Of a stretch of DNA of 64,000 nucleotides, positions 9,440 through 36,779 are shown piece after piece. Source of the DNA: Geomonas paludis (GTDB lineage Bacteria; Desulfobacterota; Desulfuromonadia; Geobacterales; Geobacteraceae); assembly GCF_014193585.1 (NCBI RefSeq), contig NZ_BLXY01000007.1, positions 1-64,000 of the forward strand, given 5' to 3'. The notes under the pieces were generated by a model that ran no database searches, was not told the origin of the DNA, and saw only the letters and a list, made by a program, of their open reading frames with translations. Each line of letters opens with the position of its first letter. Position 1 is the stretch's first letter. Position numbers and translations under genes: made by a program.

Positions 9440-9484
9440 GTGCCACCTCCGTTGGTTGTATCTTGTCACCCCCTCGGCAAAGGA

Positions 9485-9514
9485 GGGGACTGGCTCCGCC
9501 AGGTGCCTGTCCCC
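9485..9514. repeat. Dispersed palindrome family A, copy 1
   Basis: Imperfect hairpin with arms GGGGACTGGC / GCCTGTCCCC and centre TCCGCCAGGT. One of about twelve related copies in the window, all with conserved GGGGAC...GTCCCC ends. Confidence 0.9.
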
Positions 9515-9556
9515 TTAGTGCTTGGAAGCTGGCTGAGCTGAAAGGTGCGTTCCGCT

Positions 9557-9590
9557 AAAGGGACTGGCACCTCGCGGAGCCAGTCCCTTT
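9557..9590. repeat. Dispersed palindrome family A, copy 2 (perfect arms)
   Basis: Arms AAAGGGACTGGC and GCCAGTCCCTTT pair over 12 bp without mismatch, with loop ACCTCGCGGA. It lies 42 bp from copy 1 and just downstream of the Fe-S protein's stop codon, where it could end transcription of that minus-strand gene. Confidence 0.9.
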
Positions 9591-9612
9591 TGCCGACTGT
9601 CCCTTACTCGTG

Positions 9613-10980
9613 TCACGAGAACCGGTCCACCTCGACGTGCTCCAGCAGCCGTGCCAGGTAACGGGACTTCAGCTGCTGGCTGGCCATGACCCTCTTTACC
9701 GGCGGCAGCTTGAGGATGGCCCCGAGGATGGCCGCCATGGCGCGGTGGCTCAGGTAGGCCTGGTTGTCGAAGATGAGGTTTTGCAGCTTGCCGCGTTCGA
9801 TCGCCATCAGCACCAGGCGGTGCGCGGTGTTAACCGGGGTCAGGACGCGCCGGGCCCGGCTGGTGAGCCGGATGGCGCCGGCGGGGCAGGCGCGCACGCA
9901 GACCCCGCATCCCAGGCAGAAGTCGGTGGCGACCCGCGCCCTGGGGCCGCCCCTGTCGCGACCTCCCCCCTCCGGGAAGAGGAGTTCGCCGTCGGAAATC
10001 CCCGCCCCCGGAGGGGGAGGGTCAGGGAGGGGGGAGGGGGGCTCTTCGGCATCCATGGTGATGGCGTCCACCGGGCAGACGGCGGCGCACTTGCCGCAGC
10101 CGGTGCAGCGTTGGACGGCCGTCGCCTGCACGAAGTTGGTGCTGTACATGGCGTTGGGGATGGCCAGCCTGCGGGTGGCGATAAGCCCCTCGCAGCAGCA
10201 GCGGCAGCAGTTGCAGATGAAGTTCACCCGTTGCTGCACGTTATCCGCACACTGCACCAGGTTCAGGTCGCGCGCCTTTTGCAGCAGGTCGAGCCCCTCG
10301 GCGCTTTCCACCCGGCGCGCCACGCCGCGCCGCAACAGCGACTGTGCCGCCAGGTTCAGGGTGAGACAGATGTCCAGCGGCGCGTCGCAGGCGCGCTCCA
10401 CGTGCGCCATCTTCTGGCGGCAGTAGCAAAGCCCCACGGCGATGTGGCTCGCGCTCTTGATCACCTCGCTGGCCCGCTCGTAGTCCAGTACCTGGCAGGC
10501 CTTCTCGTCGGGAATGGCTTCCTCGTTCACCAGCACCCGCCCCAGTGATGTCTCGCCCCCGGCGAAGAGGTCGCGGATGAAGGCGTCCTCCACGTTGATG
10601 TAGTGGAAAAAGAGGCGGGACAGTTCCTTCTGGTCCAGGTCCGGACGCAGCCGCATCAGCGAGAACTCGAAAAAGCCCGCCATCGGGGGAGGGAGGATGT
10701 AGACCATCCTCCCCTCGCGCTCGATGTCGAGCAGCAGCGAGCGCGAGGCAAGCGTCTCCAGCCGCGCGCGTGTCTCTTCGATGGAGAGATTCCACACCCT
10801 GGCTGCCTTGGCCGCGGAGAAAGGGCGCAGCGGCAGCATGCTCATCAGCGTCGCCTCCTGCTCGCTGCACAAAAGGGAAAAGATCCTGAGCAGGAGATCG
10901 GAGTCGGGGGCCCCCTGGGGAAAGAGGTTCACCCGCCGCATCAGGCGGTGATAGCCGTCGTTGCCTCGCTGTTCTGACAA
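9613..10980 (-). CDS. Cys-rich 4Fe-4S dicluster protein, uncharacterised family
   Basis: 455 aa from a TTG start at 10980, chosen because AAAAGGAG lies 7 nt upstream; the longer frame has no ribosome site and overlaps the promoter. The N-terminal ~110 residues look like a winged-helix module (SAAKAARVWNLSIEETRARLETLASRSLL, quoted in part). The centre has two Cys clusters, LCYCRQKMAHVERACDAPLDIC and ICNCCRCCCEG in parts, and the C-terminal part is a bacterial 2x[4Fe-4S] ferredoxin (CTGCGKCAAVCPVDAI and CLGCGVCVRACPAGAI). The CYCR...H...C / CCxCC layout recurs in anaerobe proteins of unknown function. Between the two ferredoxin motifs sits a ~35-residue Pro/Gly-rich insert encoded by a copy of an intergenic repeat (10001-10033). 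The redox partner is unknown. Confidence 0.75.
   Translation of the reverse strand: MSEQRGNDGYHRLMRRVNLFPQGAPDSDLLLRIFSLLCSEQEATLMSMLPLRPFSAAKAARVWNLSIEETRARLETLASRSLLLDIEREGRMVYILPPPMAGFFEFSLMRLRPDLDQKELSRLFFHYINVEDAFIRDLFAGGETSLGRVLVNEEAIPDEKACQVLDYERASEVIKSASHIAVGLCYCRQKMAHVERACDAPLDICLTLNLAAQSLLRRGVARRVESAEGLDLLQKARDLNLVQCADNVQQRVNFICNCCRCCCEGLIATRRLAIPNAMYSTNFVQATAVQRCTGCGKCAAVCPVDAITMDAEEPPSPLPDPPPPGAGISDGELLFPEGGGRDRGGPRARVATDFCLGCGVCVRACPAGAIRLTSRARRVLTPVNTAHRLVLMAIERGKLQNLIFDNQAYLSHRAMAAILGAILKLPPVKRVMASQQLKSRYLARLLEHVEVDRFS
10001..10033. repeat. Intergenic-type GC repeat (family B) inside a coding sequence
   Basis: This 33-bp stretch is identical base for base to 35298-35330, which lies in the non-coding leader of xseA. 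Here it is read in frame on the minus strand and contributes a Pro-rich stretch between the two ferredoxin motifs. Flanking GC-rich hairpin sequence extends from about 9961 to 10045. Confidence 0.9.
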
Positions 10981-11016
10981 GGTGTTGCTCCTTTTATTAA
11001 AAAACGACAATGTGCC

Positions 11017-11044
11017 AGTATAGCAGGGTGGCAACCGCCGGCAA
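11017..11044 (-). promoter_or_regulatory. Promoter of the Cys-rich ferredoxin-like gene
   Basis: Minus strand: TTGCCG (11044-11039), 16-bp spacer, TATACT (11022-11017), about 37 bp before the TTG start with a T-rich/A-rich leader ending in AAAAGGAG. Confidence 0.5.
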
Positions 11045-17281: not shown

Positions 17282-17328
17282 AGGGGGCTCCTGTAGCGAG
17301 TGAGGATGTTGGGACTGGCTCCGGGGAT

Positions 17329-17357
17329 GGGGACTGGCTCCGCAGGTGCCTGTCCCC
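17329..17357. repeat. Dispersed palindrome family A, copy 3
   Basis: Arms GGGGACTGGC / GCCTGTCCCC, centre TCCGCAGGT. A truncated half copy (GGGACTGGCTCCGGGG) lies directly before it at 17311-17326. Both sit between ccoS and the DsbD_2-like gene, inside the operon. Confidence 0.9.
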
Positions 17358-17372
17358 TTATGCCTTTAGCTG

Positions 17373-22362: not shown

Positions 22363-22400
22363 CGCGTCCTCCTTTGCTCACTTTTTGTTCATCCCGGCAT

Positions 22401-22429
22401 GGGGACTGGCTCCGCAGGTGCCTGTCCCC
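22401..22429. repeat. Dispersed palindrome family A, copy 4
   Basis: Arms GGGGACTGGC / GCCTGTCCCC, identical in sequence to copy 3. It lies between ccoQ and ccoP within the operon, 9 nt after the ccoQ stop. Confidence 0.9.
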
Positions 22430-22438
22430 TTCATCTTC

Positions 22439-25144: not shown

Positions 25145-25172
25145 GGGACAGGCTCCGTCAGGTGCCTGTCCC
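25145..25172. repeat. Dispersed palindrome family A, copy 5
   Basis: Arms GGGACAGGC / GCCTGTCCC pair perfectly over 9 bp, with centre TCCGTCAGGT. It abuts the family C palindrome at 25173. Confidence 0.9.
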
Positions 25173-25200
25173 TGGTTCCCAAGCTCCAGCTTGGGAACCA
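25173..25200. repeat. Perfect palindrome, family C
   Basis: 28 bp: arms TGGTTCCCAAGCT and AGCTTGGGAACCA, fully complementary, with only CC between them. Relatives are at 35025-35050 and 35112-35137. Confidence 0.95.
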
Positions 25201-25240
25201 CATAACGCTCCTTTCAGCTAAGCAACCTTCTCAAATCAAA

Positions 25241-25270
25241 GGGGACAGGCACCTGGCGGAGCCAGTCCCC
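25241..25270. repeat. Dispersed palindrome family A, copy 6
   Basis: Arms GGGGACAGGC / GCCAGTCCCC around ACCTGGCGGA. It is inverted relative to copy 5, 68 bp away. Confidence 0.9.
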
Positions 25271-25431
25271 CATCTCCCTTTGCGAGGGGGGGGCAGGGGG
25301 GATTTCAGAAACCTGCGCATATGCCGATAAGCAATGTATCGGGATGCCCTGTTTTGACTAAAAGTCTGTTCCCTTATCTTTGTCGATGGCGCCGGCCTCC
25401 CCTTACAGTGGCGGCCGGCCCGGAGGAGTCT

Positions 25432-28075: not shown

Positions 28076-28090
28076 CAAACGAAAGTGGGG

Positions 28091-28119
28091 GGGGACCGGC
28101 TCCGCAGGTGCCGGTCCCC
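28091..28119. repeat. Dispersed palindrome family A, copy 7 (compensated arms)
   Basis: Arms GGGGACCGGC / GCCGGTCCCC pair over 10 bp with no mismatch. Relative to other copies the seventh base of one arm and its partner have both changed (to C and G), preserving the pair. Confidence 0.9.
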
Positions 28120-28164
28120 TTTGCAGTAGCAGCACGCAGCACCAGAGCAGATGTAGCTCCTTTA

Positions 28165-32206: not shown

Positions 32207-32236
32207 GGGGACAGGCACCTGGCGGAGCCAGTCCCC
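32207..32236. repeat. Dispersed palindrome family A, copy 8
   Basis: Arms GGGGACAGGC / GCCAGTCCCC around ACCTGGCGGA, identical to copy 6. It lies between the divergent hemerythrin and deacetylase-like genes. The rest of the 328-bp gap holds the hemerythrin promoter and nothing else I recognise. Confidence 0.9.
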
Positions 32237-32403
32237 TTTTCCCCCCTTTCTCTGTCACTCCCTTTTTGCAAAGTAATTGCAATGTCGCAGCGCATCATGC
32301 TATCTCACATTAAAACGTGCCGGCCGGCTGAAAGAGCCGGCACTGATGTCTTGGGGCGGTCGCGGCAATGCCATCTCGCGGCGACGTCCCGGTGGAGGTA
32401 GTT

Positions 32404-34918: not shown

Positions 34919-34987
34919 CCCGTTTGACAGTGGGCGAGGGGGAGCGAAGGCGGAGGGAGAGAGTGGGAGAGGGGGACAGTGGGAGAG

Positions 34988-35016
34988 GGGGACAGGCACC
35001 TGCGGAGCCAGTCCCC
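34988..35016. repeat. Dispersed palindrome family A, copy 9
   Basis: Arms GGGGACAGGC / GCCAGTCCCC around ACCTGCGGA. Confidence 0.9.
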
Positions 35017-35024
35017 TTTGATCT

Positions 35025-35050
35025 CGTTCCCAAGGTCCACCTTGGGAACG
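35025..35050. repeat. Perfect palindrome, family C
   Basis: Arms CGTTCCCAAGGT and ACCTTGGGAACG with CC between; the inner bases differ from the copy at 25173 but are compensated on both arms. Confidence 0.93.
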
Positions 35051-35111
35051 CAAAGCCTCTCGGAAGCTCCGACTTCTTTCGGATGCAAAGCTGGAGCTTT
35101 GCGCCATATGG

Positions 35112-35137
35112 GGTTCCCAAGCTGGAGCTTGGGAACC
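35112..35137. repeat. Perfect palindrome, family C
   Basis: Arms GGTTCCCAAGCT and AGCTTGGGAACC with GG between; same arms as the copy at 25173. Confidence 0.93.
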
Positions 35138-35201
35138 AGGAAATACCAACAGCATTCGCTAATACAGCCTTTGACAATGGGAAGGGGGCGAAGTCGTAGA
35201 G

Positions 35202-35230
35202 GGGGACAGGCACCTGCGGAGCCAGTCCCC
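35202..35230. repeat. Dispersed palindrome family A, copy 10
   Basis: Same 29-bp sequence as copy 9 (arms GGGGACAGGC / GCCAGTCCCC), 214 bp downstream in the same orientation. Confidence 0.9.
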
Positions 35231-35250
35231 TTGCTGGGTGGTCAAGGCGT

Positions 35251-35297: not shown

Positions 35298-35389
35298 CCC
35301 GCCCCCGGAGGGGGAGGGTCAGGGAGGGGGCGCGCAGCGCCTGGCACCCACTTCCCCCCACCGAGCCTCCCCCTCCGGGGGGAGGGGCG
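35298..35389. repeat. GC-rich palindromic block (family B) in the xseA leader
   Basis: The left 33 bp (35298-35330) are identical to 10001-10033. The right part CCTCCCCCTCCGGGGGGAGG forms its own hairpin ending 3 nt before the xseA ribosome site AAGGAGG. Confidence 0.88.
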
Positions 35390-35402: not shown

Positions 35403-36779
35403 GTGCAACTTTTCAAAGAACGCCGTGTCCTGACGGTGAGCGCGCTGACGGCGCTGGTGCGCGGCCTCCTGGAGGAGAACTTCGACCAGGTCTGGGTGGA
35501 AGGGGAGATCTCCAACCTCGCCTGCCCCACGTCCGGGCACTGCTACTTCACCCTCAAGGACCCCGGCGCCCAGATCCGCTGCGTCATGTTCCGGGGCGCC
35601 TTCCGCACCCTCAAGTTCACCCCCCGCGACGGGATGCGCGTGCTCGTGCGCGCCCGCATGACCCTGTTCGAGCCGCGCGGCGAGTACCAGCTCTCGGTCG
35701 ACAGCATGGAGCCGCAGGGGATCGGCGGGCTGCAGCTCGCCTTCATCCAGTTGAAGGAGCGTCTCGCCAAGGAGGGGCTCTTCTCGGAGCTGCACAAGCG
35801 CGCGATCCCCAAACTCCCCCGCAAGATCGGCGTGGTCACCTCGCCGACCGGCGCGGCCATCCGCGACATCCTCACCGTGCTCTCGCGCCGCTTCGCCAAC
35901 GTGGAACTTTTGATCGCGCCGGTCCGGGTGCAGGGTGAGGGGGCGGCCCAGGAGATCGCGGCGGCGATCGCCGACCTGAACCGCGCCGGCAACGTCGACG
36001 TCATGATCGTCGGCCGCGGCGGCGGCTCCCTGGAGGACCTGTGGGCCTTCAACGAGGAGGTGGTTGCCCGCGCCATTCATAAATCCACGGTTCCCGTCAT
36101 CTCTGCGGTGGGGCACGAGATCGACTTCACCATCGCCGACTTCGTCGCCGACCTGCGCGCCGCCACCCCGTCCGCCGCGGCGGAACTGGTGGTGCAGAGC
36201 AAGCAGGAATTGACCGCGACGGTGGAGGCGCTGGACCACCGGCTCCAGGTCGCGCAACTGCGCCGGCTGGAACGCTCGCGCGCGCTGGTGACGGCGATGA
36301 GCCGCGCCATCACCGACCCCAGCCGCATCCTGGGCCACCTGGCGCAGCGGGTCGACTCGCTGGACGCCCGCCTGGTGCGGGAGGCGGGGCTGATCCTCGA
36401 CGACGCCTCGGAGCGGATCGTCACCCTGTCGGCGCGCCTGGCCCGCCAGAGCCCCGCGCTCACCCTGCAGCGCAACGCCGAGCGGCTCTCGACGCTCTCG
36501 CTGCGCCTGGACCACGCCATGACCCGGCGCCTCGCCTGCGCCGCCGAGAGCGTCGGGCTCGCCACCGGGACTTTGAACGCGGTCTCGCCGCTGGCCACCC
36601 TGTCCCGCGGCTACAGCATCGCCCGCAAGCTCCCCGGCCGCTCGGTGGTCACCTCGTTCCGCCAGCTGGCCCCCGGCGACCGCCTGGAACTCTCCCTTGC
36701 CGCCGGTTTCGCCCTTTGCACCGTGGAGGAGGCTCGCGGGCAGAGTGAATCCTTGACGGCTCCAGAGCGATCGGTATAA
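35403..36779 (+). CDS. xseA: Exodeoxyribonuclease VII large subunit
   Basis: 458 aa from GTG 35403 (AAGGAGG 4-5 nt upstream). A longer frame from 35238 would translate promoter and repeat DNA and is rejected. The N-terminal OB domain ([24 protein letters not shown] in parts) is followed by the catalytic XseA domain ([45 protein letters not shown]) and a long coiled coil (~280-420). With XseB it degrades single-stranded DNA from both ends in the cytoplasm. It is first in the run xseA-xseB-ispA-dxs, a common bacterial order. Confidence 0.95.

What the first reader, a model, noticed from the sequence alone, without database searches (positions are those of the whole stretch)
9961..10045. An intergenic repeat inserted in frame between the two Fe-S motifs of a ferredoxin-like protein
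Bases 10001-10033 match 35298-35330 at all 33 positions, yet lie inside the coding sequence and encode a Pro/Gly-rich segment between CPVDAIT and DFCLGC. The insertion keeps the frame, so the repeat family can create new linkers inside proteins. The normal spacing between such ferredoxin motifs is much shorter.
Basis: seen in the sequence. Interest (0 to 1): 0.7.

Follow-up and report, generated by a model that had tools for sequence, protein, structure and literature searches.

The report
Palindromic repeat inserted inside ferredoxin gene
A short palindromic DNA repeat that normally sits between genes landed, without breaking the reading frame, inside an iron-sulfur protein gene of a group of soil bacteria, adding about 30 amino acids between two metal-binding motifs; this is a well-documented example of a known kind of event.

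Summary
Window 9950-10033 (- strand) is a doublet of two GC-rich palindromic repeats (REP-like, here A and B) inside the gene of a 4Fe-4S protein of a Geomonas-group genome. A has 54 copies and B 42 in this genome, in 61 loci. Of 20 orthologues measured, 7 of the same genus carry it (gap 96-204 nt) and 13 do not (57-78 nt). Carriers other than the truncated G012 share an alignable spacer, which points to one origin. A close relative (G013) lacks it, so a loss or a second gain is needed. The host gene is under purifying selection. The insert is in frame in 6 of 7 carriers; in G006 it is not. A B repeat also sits in frame in a DNA ligase D linker in 6 of these genomes. Internal insertions are rare: 2 of 61 loci here, 0 of 74 sampled elsewhere. 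Intragenic REPs and in-gene Geobacter repeats are already in print (PMC3733652, PMC2996986). Less expected: the A core is invariant at 7 of 7 four-fold sites, against 37 of 114 upstream. Verdict: new member of a known kind.

The parts
9613..11034 (-). Open frame of the host gene: a protein with a conserved N-terminal region and two C-terminal 4Fe-4S motifs; true start uncertain (the conserved part begins near 10980)
9919..10071 (-). 153-nt stretch between the first CxxCxxCxxxCP motif and the second, 57-78 nt in orthologues without the insert
9998..10033 (-). A repeat (CCCCCTCCCTGACCCTCCCCCTCCGGGGGCGGGG), core 10006-10028; encodes [11 protein letters not shown]
9962..9984 (-). B repeat core (CTCCTCTTCCCGGAGGGGGGAGG, 2 mismatches to the search pattern), degenerate tail to about 9950; encodes LLFPEGG
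9985..9997 (-). Spacer between A and B; alignable among the carriers other than the truncated G012
   Evidence: alignment
35298..35330 (-). Intergenic A copy upstream of the gene that starts near 35404 (xseA-like, name recalled from the sequence); a B-like arm lies at about 35354-35386, too degenerate for the B pattern, so one search counts it as A alone

Best explanation
A doublet of REP-like palindromic repeats (A then B, 44 nt from core to core) inserted once into the loop between the two 4Fe-4S motifs of this gene in an ancestor of one clade of the genus. Shown: the repeats are a dispersed family; carriers and non-carriers exist; the spacer is alignable among carriers; frame and purifying selection are mostly kept. 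Inferred: the GC-rich repeats have few stop codons in any frame, so an insertion of length 3n gives a stop-free Pro/Gly-rich loop, and selection removed insertions that broke genes. Also inferred: movement was by a trans-acting enzyme or by recombination, since no transposase was found beside this family here. The insert is most likely a tolerated loop and not a new function. It is shorter in G012, longer in G003, out of frame in G006 and probably lost in G013.
For: Copy number with zero reversed-pattern matches in this genome. Doublet architecture: 34 of 35 doublets are A/B heterodimers, 28 as B-A and 6 as A-B including this one. Presence in 7 of 20 and absence in 13 of 20 orthologues. Gap lengths 153, 150, 168, 153, 96 and 204 nt, all multiples of 3; only 151 (G006) is not. 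dN/dS of G000 against the 6 other carriers is 0.07-0.20 over 864 nt before the insert and 0.06-0.22 over 303 nt after it. B is open in 6 of 6 frames and A in 4 to 6 of 6. A second in-frame case in a ligD interdomain linker in 6 genomes, with a possible cut-down remnant in G013. Internal cases are few: 2 of 61 loci by coding score.
Against: G013 groups inside the carrier clade but lacks the insert, so both trees need 2 changes, not 1; the protein tree leaves G003, G006 and G013 unresolved. G006 is frameshifted inside the insert, so frame is not always kept, although its downstream part still shows dN/dS of 0.12-0.17 against 5 genomes. No protein evidence. The DNA fold of the insert is not more stable than shuffles (z 0.76). 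No target-site duplication was looked for. No A or B repeat at up to 3 mismatches lies in the loci of the 5 Y1_Tnp matches.
Confidence: 0.88

Rival explanations
1. The insert has been co-opted: its DNA or RNA sequence, or the Pro-rich loop itself, is now selected for a function (hairpin in the mRNA, spacing of the two clusters, docking of a partner).
For: In 6 carriers the A core is invariant at 7 of 7 four-fold sites, against 37 of 114 in the 864 nt upstream (Fisher p 0.0006); Pro codons 5 of 5 against 1 of 10 (p 0.002). The B repeat is well kept in an otherwise variable ligD linker in 6 genomes.
Against: G012 lacks the second half, G013 lacks it altogether and G006 is out of frame within it, so it is dispensable. 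With G012 included the count is 6 of 7 against 34 of 111 (p 0.006). Only 7 sites were tested, after the pattern had been noticed, and neighbouring sites share one history. Copies of the family elsewhere have the same core, so conversion between copies could also keep it.
Confidence: 0.15
2. The insert arose more than once at the same site, or spread between species by recombination.
For: The tree needs 2 changes, and G013 without it sits beside G003 with it (90/91 support on the DNA tree).
Against: The spacer between A and B is alignable in the 6 carriers that have it, which separate insertions would not give; one loss in G013 explains the pattern, and its gap is the shortest of the 20 (57 nt). 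G013 also seems to hold a cut-down remnant of the ligD repeat, in line with losing such inserts.
Confidence: 0.12
3. The gene is decaying and the insert marks a pseudogene.
For: Frameshift in G006; the genome also has a paralogue (47% identical) that could substitute.
Against: Purifying selection on both sides of the insert in the carriers; the motif cysteines are kept in the 4 carriers of alignment A1.
Confidence: 0.04
4. Assembly or sequencing artefact.
For: GC-rich repeats are hard to assemble; the G006 frameshift lies next to G-runs and could be such an error.
Against: The insert is present in 7 separate genomes at the same site with species-specific differences, including two single-contig assemblies, G003 and G006.
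Confidence: 0.01

Closest known systems
Intragenic REPs (GTAG and CGTC families), BMC Genomics 2013, PMC3733652
   Same: Short palindromes in high copy, mostly intergenic and often doublets; [quoted passage not shown] ORF ends formed by REPs; a DNA ligase among targets; CGTC families without a linked transposase (passages read).
   Different: Geobacter does not occur in its main text. Our A repeat has a CGTC end in only 14 of 54 copies by the parse (one more by eye), and its stem does not begin with A/T pairs as described for CGTC families.
Multicopy nucleotide sequences of Geobacter bemidjiensis and G. metallireducens (PMC2996986, PMC2700814)
   Same: One G. [quoted passage not shown] one G. 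metallireducens family with heptanucleotide repeats lies within genes (passages read).
   Different: The alignments are in supplements that could not be opened here, so whether the family is the same is unknown. That G014 is G. bemidjiensis rests on equal length (4615150 bp); it has 22 A copies at up to 2 mismatches but not this insertion.
Rickettsia palindromic elements (RPE) in proteins
   Same: Works alike: palindromic repeats inserted in frame in genes (recalled; also discussed in PMC3733652).
   Different: Different, intracellular hosts; no sequence comparison made here.
REPINs with RAYT transposases (PMC3116915, seen in search listing only)
   Same: Inverted doublets of REPs.
   Different: No RAYT found beside this family here; three of the five Y1_Tnp matches (L161, L162, L165) have other palindrome families on both sides.

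Membership tests
REP elements (general) | Short palindrome of 20-40 bp in many copies | tested here: met
   54 A and 42 B copies, reversed-pattern controls 0
REP elements (general) | Mostly intergenic, often doublets | tested here: met
   35 of 61 loci are doublets; 2 of 61 internal to genes by coding score
GTAG REPs | GTAG at one end | tested here: not met
   GTAG found in the 46-nt stretch of 1 of 54 A copies
GTAG REPs | Linked RAYT gene flanked by the repeat | tested here: not met
   No A or B repeat at up to 3 mismatches in the loci of 5 Y1_Tnp matches. With laxer patterns L165 has one B-like site (up to 6 mismatches) and one general REP-like site. Two of the 5 lie on one short contig, where flanks are cut
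CGTC REPs | CGTC (or TGTC, CCTC) at one end | tested here: inconclusive
   CGTC in 14 of 54 by the parse (one more row by eye), CCTC in 1; the in-gene copy reads AATC
CGTC REPs | Stem of 8-9 bp starting with A/T pairs, loop 4-5 | tested here: not met
   Read from the sequence: the stem CCC(T/G)CCCCC begins with G-C pairs. Feature as given in passages of PMC3733652
CGTC REPs | No dedicated transposase flanked by the repeat | tested here: met
   with the limits given above
G. bemidjiensis in-gene multicopy family | Sequence identity with the published family | not testable with these tools
Rickettsia palindromic elements | Sequence relation | not tested
MITE | Target-site duplication and link to an IS by its terminal repeats | not tested
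   No target-site duplication analysis was run

The most novel reading that the evidence does not exclude
The in-gene REP is kept at the DNA or RNA level and not only tolerated: a mobile palindrome has become a dual-use sequence, encoding a Pro-rich loop between two Fe-S clusters while its nucleotide sequence stays frozen across species in which nearby synonymous sites have diverged.
Probability: 0.15. Interest if true: 0.55.

Novelty: new member of a known kind. Interest (0 to 1): 0.33.

Why it matters
It is a clean comparative example of a bacterial repeat adding a protein segment, with carriers, non-carriers, a truncated form, a lengthened form, a frameshifted form and a probable loss in one genus. 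A second gene (ligD) shows the same. It gives a rough figure for how rarely such insertions survive inside genes, and a set of natural variants for testing whether a 30-residue loop between two clusters changes function.

Tried and rejected
DNA folding of the insert gave no excess stability over shuffles. A link to the genome's Y1_Tnp genes was not found: L161 and L162 are flanked by the GGGGACTGGCTCCG palindrome family, and the match in L165 is bracketed by TCTCGTTCCCAAGCTCCAGCTTGGGAACGC. NCBIfam gave 50 families, of which 25 were shown, all below their cut-offs. A profile search of solved structures gave 95 sequences, of which 60 were shown; their best stretches lie at profile positions 262-373, the Fe-S part. 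The xseA-side copy is patchy: by eye an A/B doublet in G000, G002 and G009, a degenerate trace in G017 and none in the other 12 of 16 genomes where the anchor was found; 3 of 19 gave no anchor. Whether intergenic orthologous copies are as frozen as the in-gene one was not tested: the extra G002 and G017 regions were chosen by exact core matches, which would bias it.

Limits of counts: one search measured 20 of 30 loci by a strict motif; one search measured 20 genomes (L020 and L022-L030 were not given to it). In one search the double motif was found in 21 of 46 named loci, 3 of them with the insert. Alignment A1 holds the window plus 35 of the 80 loci; of the 46 checked, those with a stop were dropped. 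The coding scan used ORFs of at least 80 aa and a codon score trained on 25 window ORFs. One search left out the ferredoxin copies of G002 and G017 and the B-only loci. The indel events (36, 15, 3, 57, 2 nt) were read by eye from the alignment. In one search the reversed control matched once, in G002.

Full report
What is there. Window 9613-11034 (-) is an open frame for a protein with two C-terminal 4Fe-4S motifs (Pfam Fer4 and Fer4_7 among those over the cut-off). Between them lie 51 residues, rich in Pro and Gly. The 33-nt identity between 10001-10033 and 35298-35330 is exact, and the core has no match in 100 shuffles.

The repeat family. The core pattern (A) has 54 matches at up to 3 mismatches in the 5.1 Mb genome, with zero for the reversed control. 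A partner palindrome (B) has 42. Grouped within 150 nt they form 61 loci: 28 doublets B then A (51-69 nt apart), 6 doublets A then B (44-127 nt), one A-A, 18 A alone and 8 B alone. Some of the 'alone' loci have a degenerate partner, as at 35354-35386. The in-gene element is an A-then-B doublet with 44 nt from core to core. The A pattern at up to 2 mismatches occurs in 17 of 19 genomes of the genus, with one reversed-control match in all, in G002.

Orthologues. Of 20 genomes measured, 7 carry the insert (G000 153, G010 150, G002 168, G017 153, G012 96, G003 204, G006 151 nt) and 13 do not (57-78 nt). By equal contig lengths G010 is Geomonas propionica Red259, G002 G. anaerohicana Red421, G012 G. 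azotofigens Red51 and G013 G. diazotrophica Red69. G005 is Citrifermentans bremense R1 by the same token, so the genus as used here spans both names. On a DNA tree of the 864 nt before the insert, carriers fill a clade of 8 except G013, which pairs with G003 (90/91); two changes are needed, and 0 of 500 label shuffles needed as few. The protein tree also needs two and leaves G003, G006 and G013 unresolved. The spacer between A and B aligns in the six carriers that have it, so one gain and one loss is the simplest account (inference).

Selection and frame. dN/dS among the 7 carriers is 0.07-0.22 before the insert; for G000 against the other 6 carriers it is 0.06-0.22 after it. Length differences in the insert read as 36, 15, 3 and 57 nt, all multiples of three, and 2 nt in G006, which is out of frame. 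G006 still shows dN/dS of 0.12-0.17 downstream against 5 genomes, so its shift is recent or an error. The stops that one search reported for G003 and G006 lie before the conserved start.

How it can stay open. B is stop-free in 6 of 6 frames; A in 6, 5 or 4 of 6 depending on one variable triplet. The gene uses a frame that avoids the TGA of A. This makes an open in-frame insertion easy, but internal cases are still rare. By a codon score on both sides, 2 of 61 loci are internal here (this gene and a ligD gene). Among 74 further loci in G002 (55) and G017 (19), with the ferredoxin copies and B-only loci left out, 0 are internal. A few loci form the ends of genes: L055, L168 and L065.

Second case. 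In ligD (name recalled from the sequence) the B repeat lies on the opposite strand to the gene, in the linker before the ligase domain, in G000, G002, G012, G003, G017 and G010. It is not found at up to 4 mismatches in the 10 other genomes whose linker was read; G007, G015 and G016 were not read (16 of the 19 genomes). G013, one of the 10, has a stretch resembling one half of the repeat at the same place (5 mismatches over 24 nt), which may be a remnant. G006 has none.

A result that is less ordinary. In the six carriers with a full A core, 7 of 7 four-fold sites are invariant, against 37 of 114 in the upstream gene part (Fisher p 0.0006). With the truncated G012 it is 6 of 7 against 34 of 111 (p 0.006). 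Constraint on the DNA or RNA, or conversion from the dispersed copies, could do this. The numbers are small and the test was chosen after seeing the pattern.

Mobility. Five Y1_Tnp matches exist. None has an A or B repeat at up to 3 mismatches in its locus; L165 has two weak REP-like sites at laxer settings. Three of them (L161, L162, L165) are flanked by two other palindrome families. How this family moves is therefore unknown; PMC3733652 says that CGTC repeats likewise lack a dedicated transposase.

Literature. PMC3733652 (passages read) describes REPs inside ORFs, dimers or groups encoding 20-30 residues and REPs at ORF ends. PMC2996986 (passages read) says one G. [quoted passage not shown] A search for Geomonas together with palindromic gave 0 papers. 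This insertion is thus a new, well-resolved member of a known kind.

Noticed in passing
L169 (G000 C1:346700-349700); ligD loci L197-L202, L205: A B repeat lies in frame in the interdomain linker of a DNA ligase D in 6 genomes, with a possible remnant in G013; the rest of the linker is a fast-changing Gly/Ser/Thr-rich stretch.
   Followed up: partly
L161, L162; window 9477-9594, 17320-17359, 22392-22431, 25145-25276, 28082-28121, 32208-32242, 34979-35232: A separate palindrome family (GGGGACTGGCTCCG...AGGTGCCTGTCCCC) flanks two Y1_Tnp (RAYT-like) genes: a candidate REP-transposase pair.
   Followed up: partly
L165; window 25171-25204 and 35107-35140: Another palindrome family (TCTCGTTCCCAAGCTCCAGCTTGGGAACGC) brackets a third Y1_Tnp match with a 30-nt perfect inverted repeat.
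   Followed up: partly
L055, L168, L065: Repeats form the last few residues of genes (C-terminal tails rich in Pro, Gly and Arg).
   Followed up: partly
L007 (G006): The insert of G006 carries a frameshift that separates the second Fe-S motif from the first; the downstream part is still conserved.
   Followed up: partly
window 9613-11034, N-terminal region: About the first 248 residues, with a CYCR motif kept in homologues from many phyla, are covered by no listed match in Pfam (9 families) or in the 25 NCBIfam rows shown.
   Followed up: no
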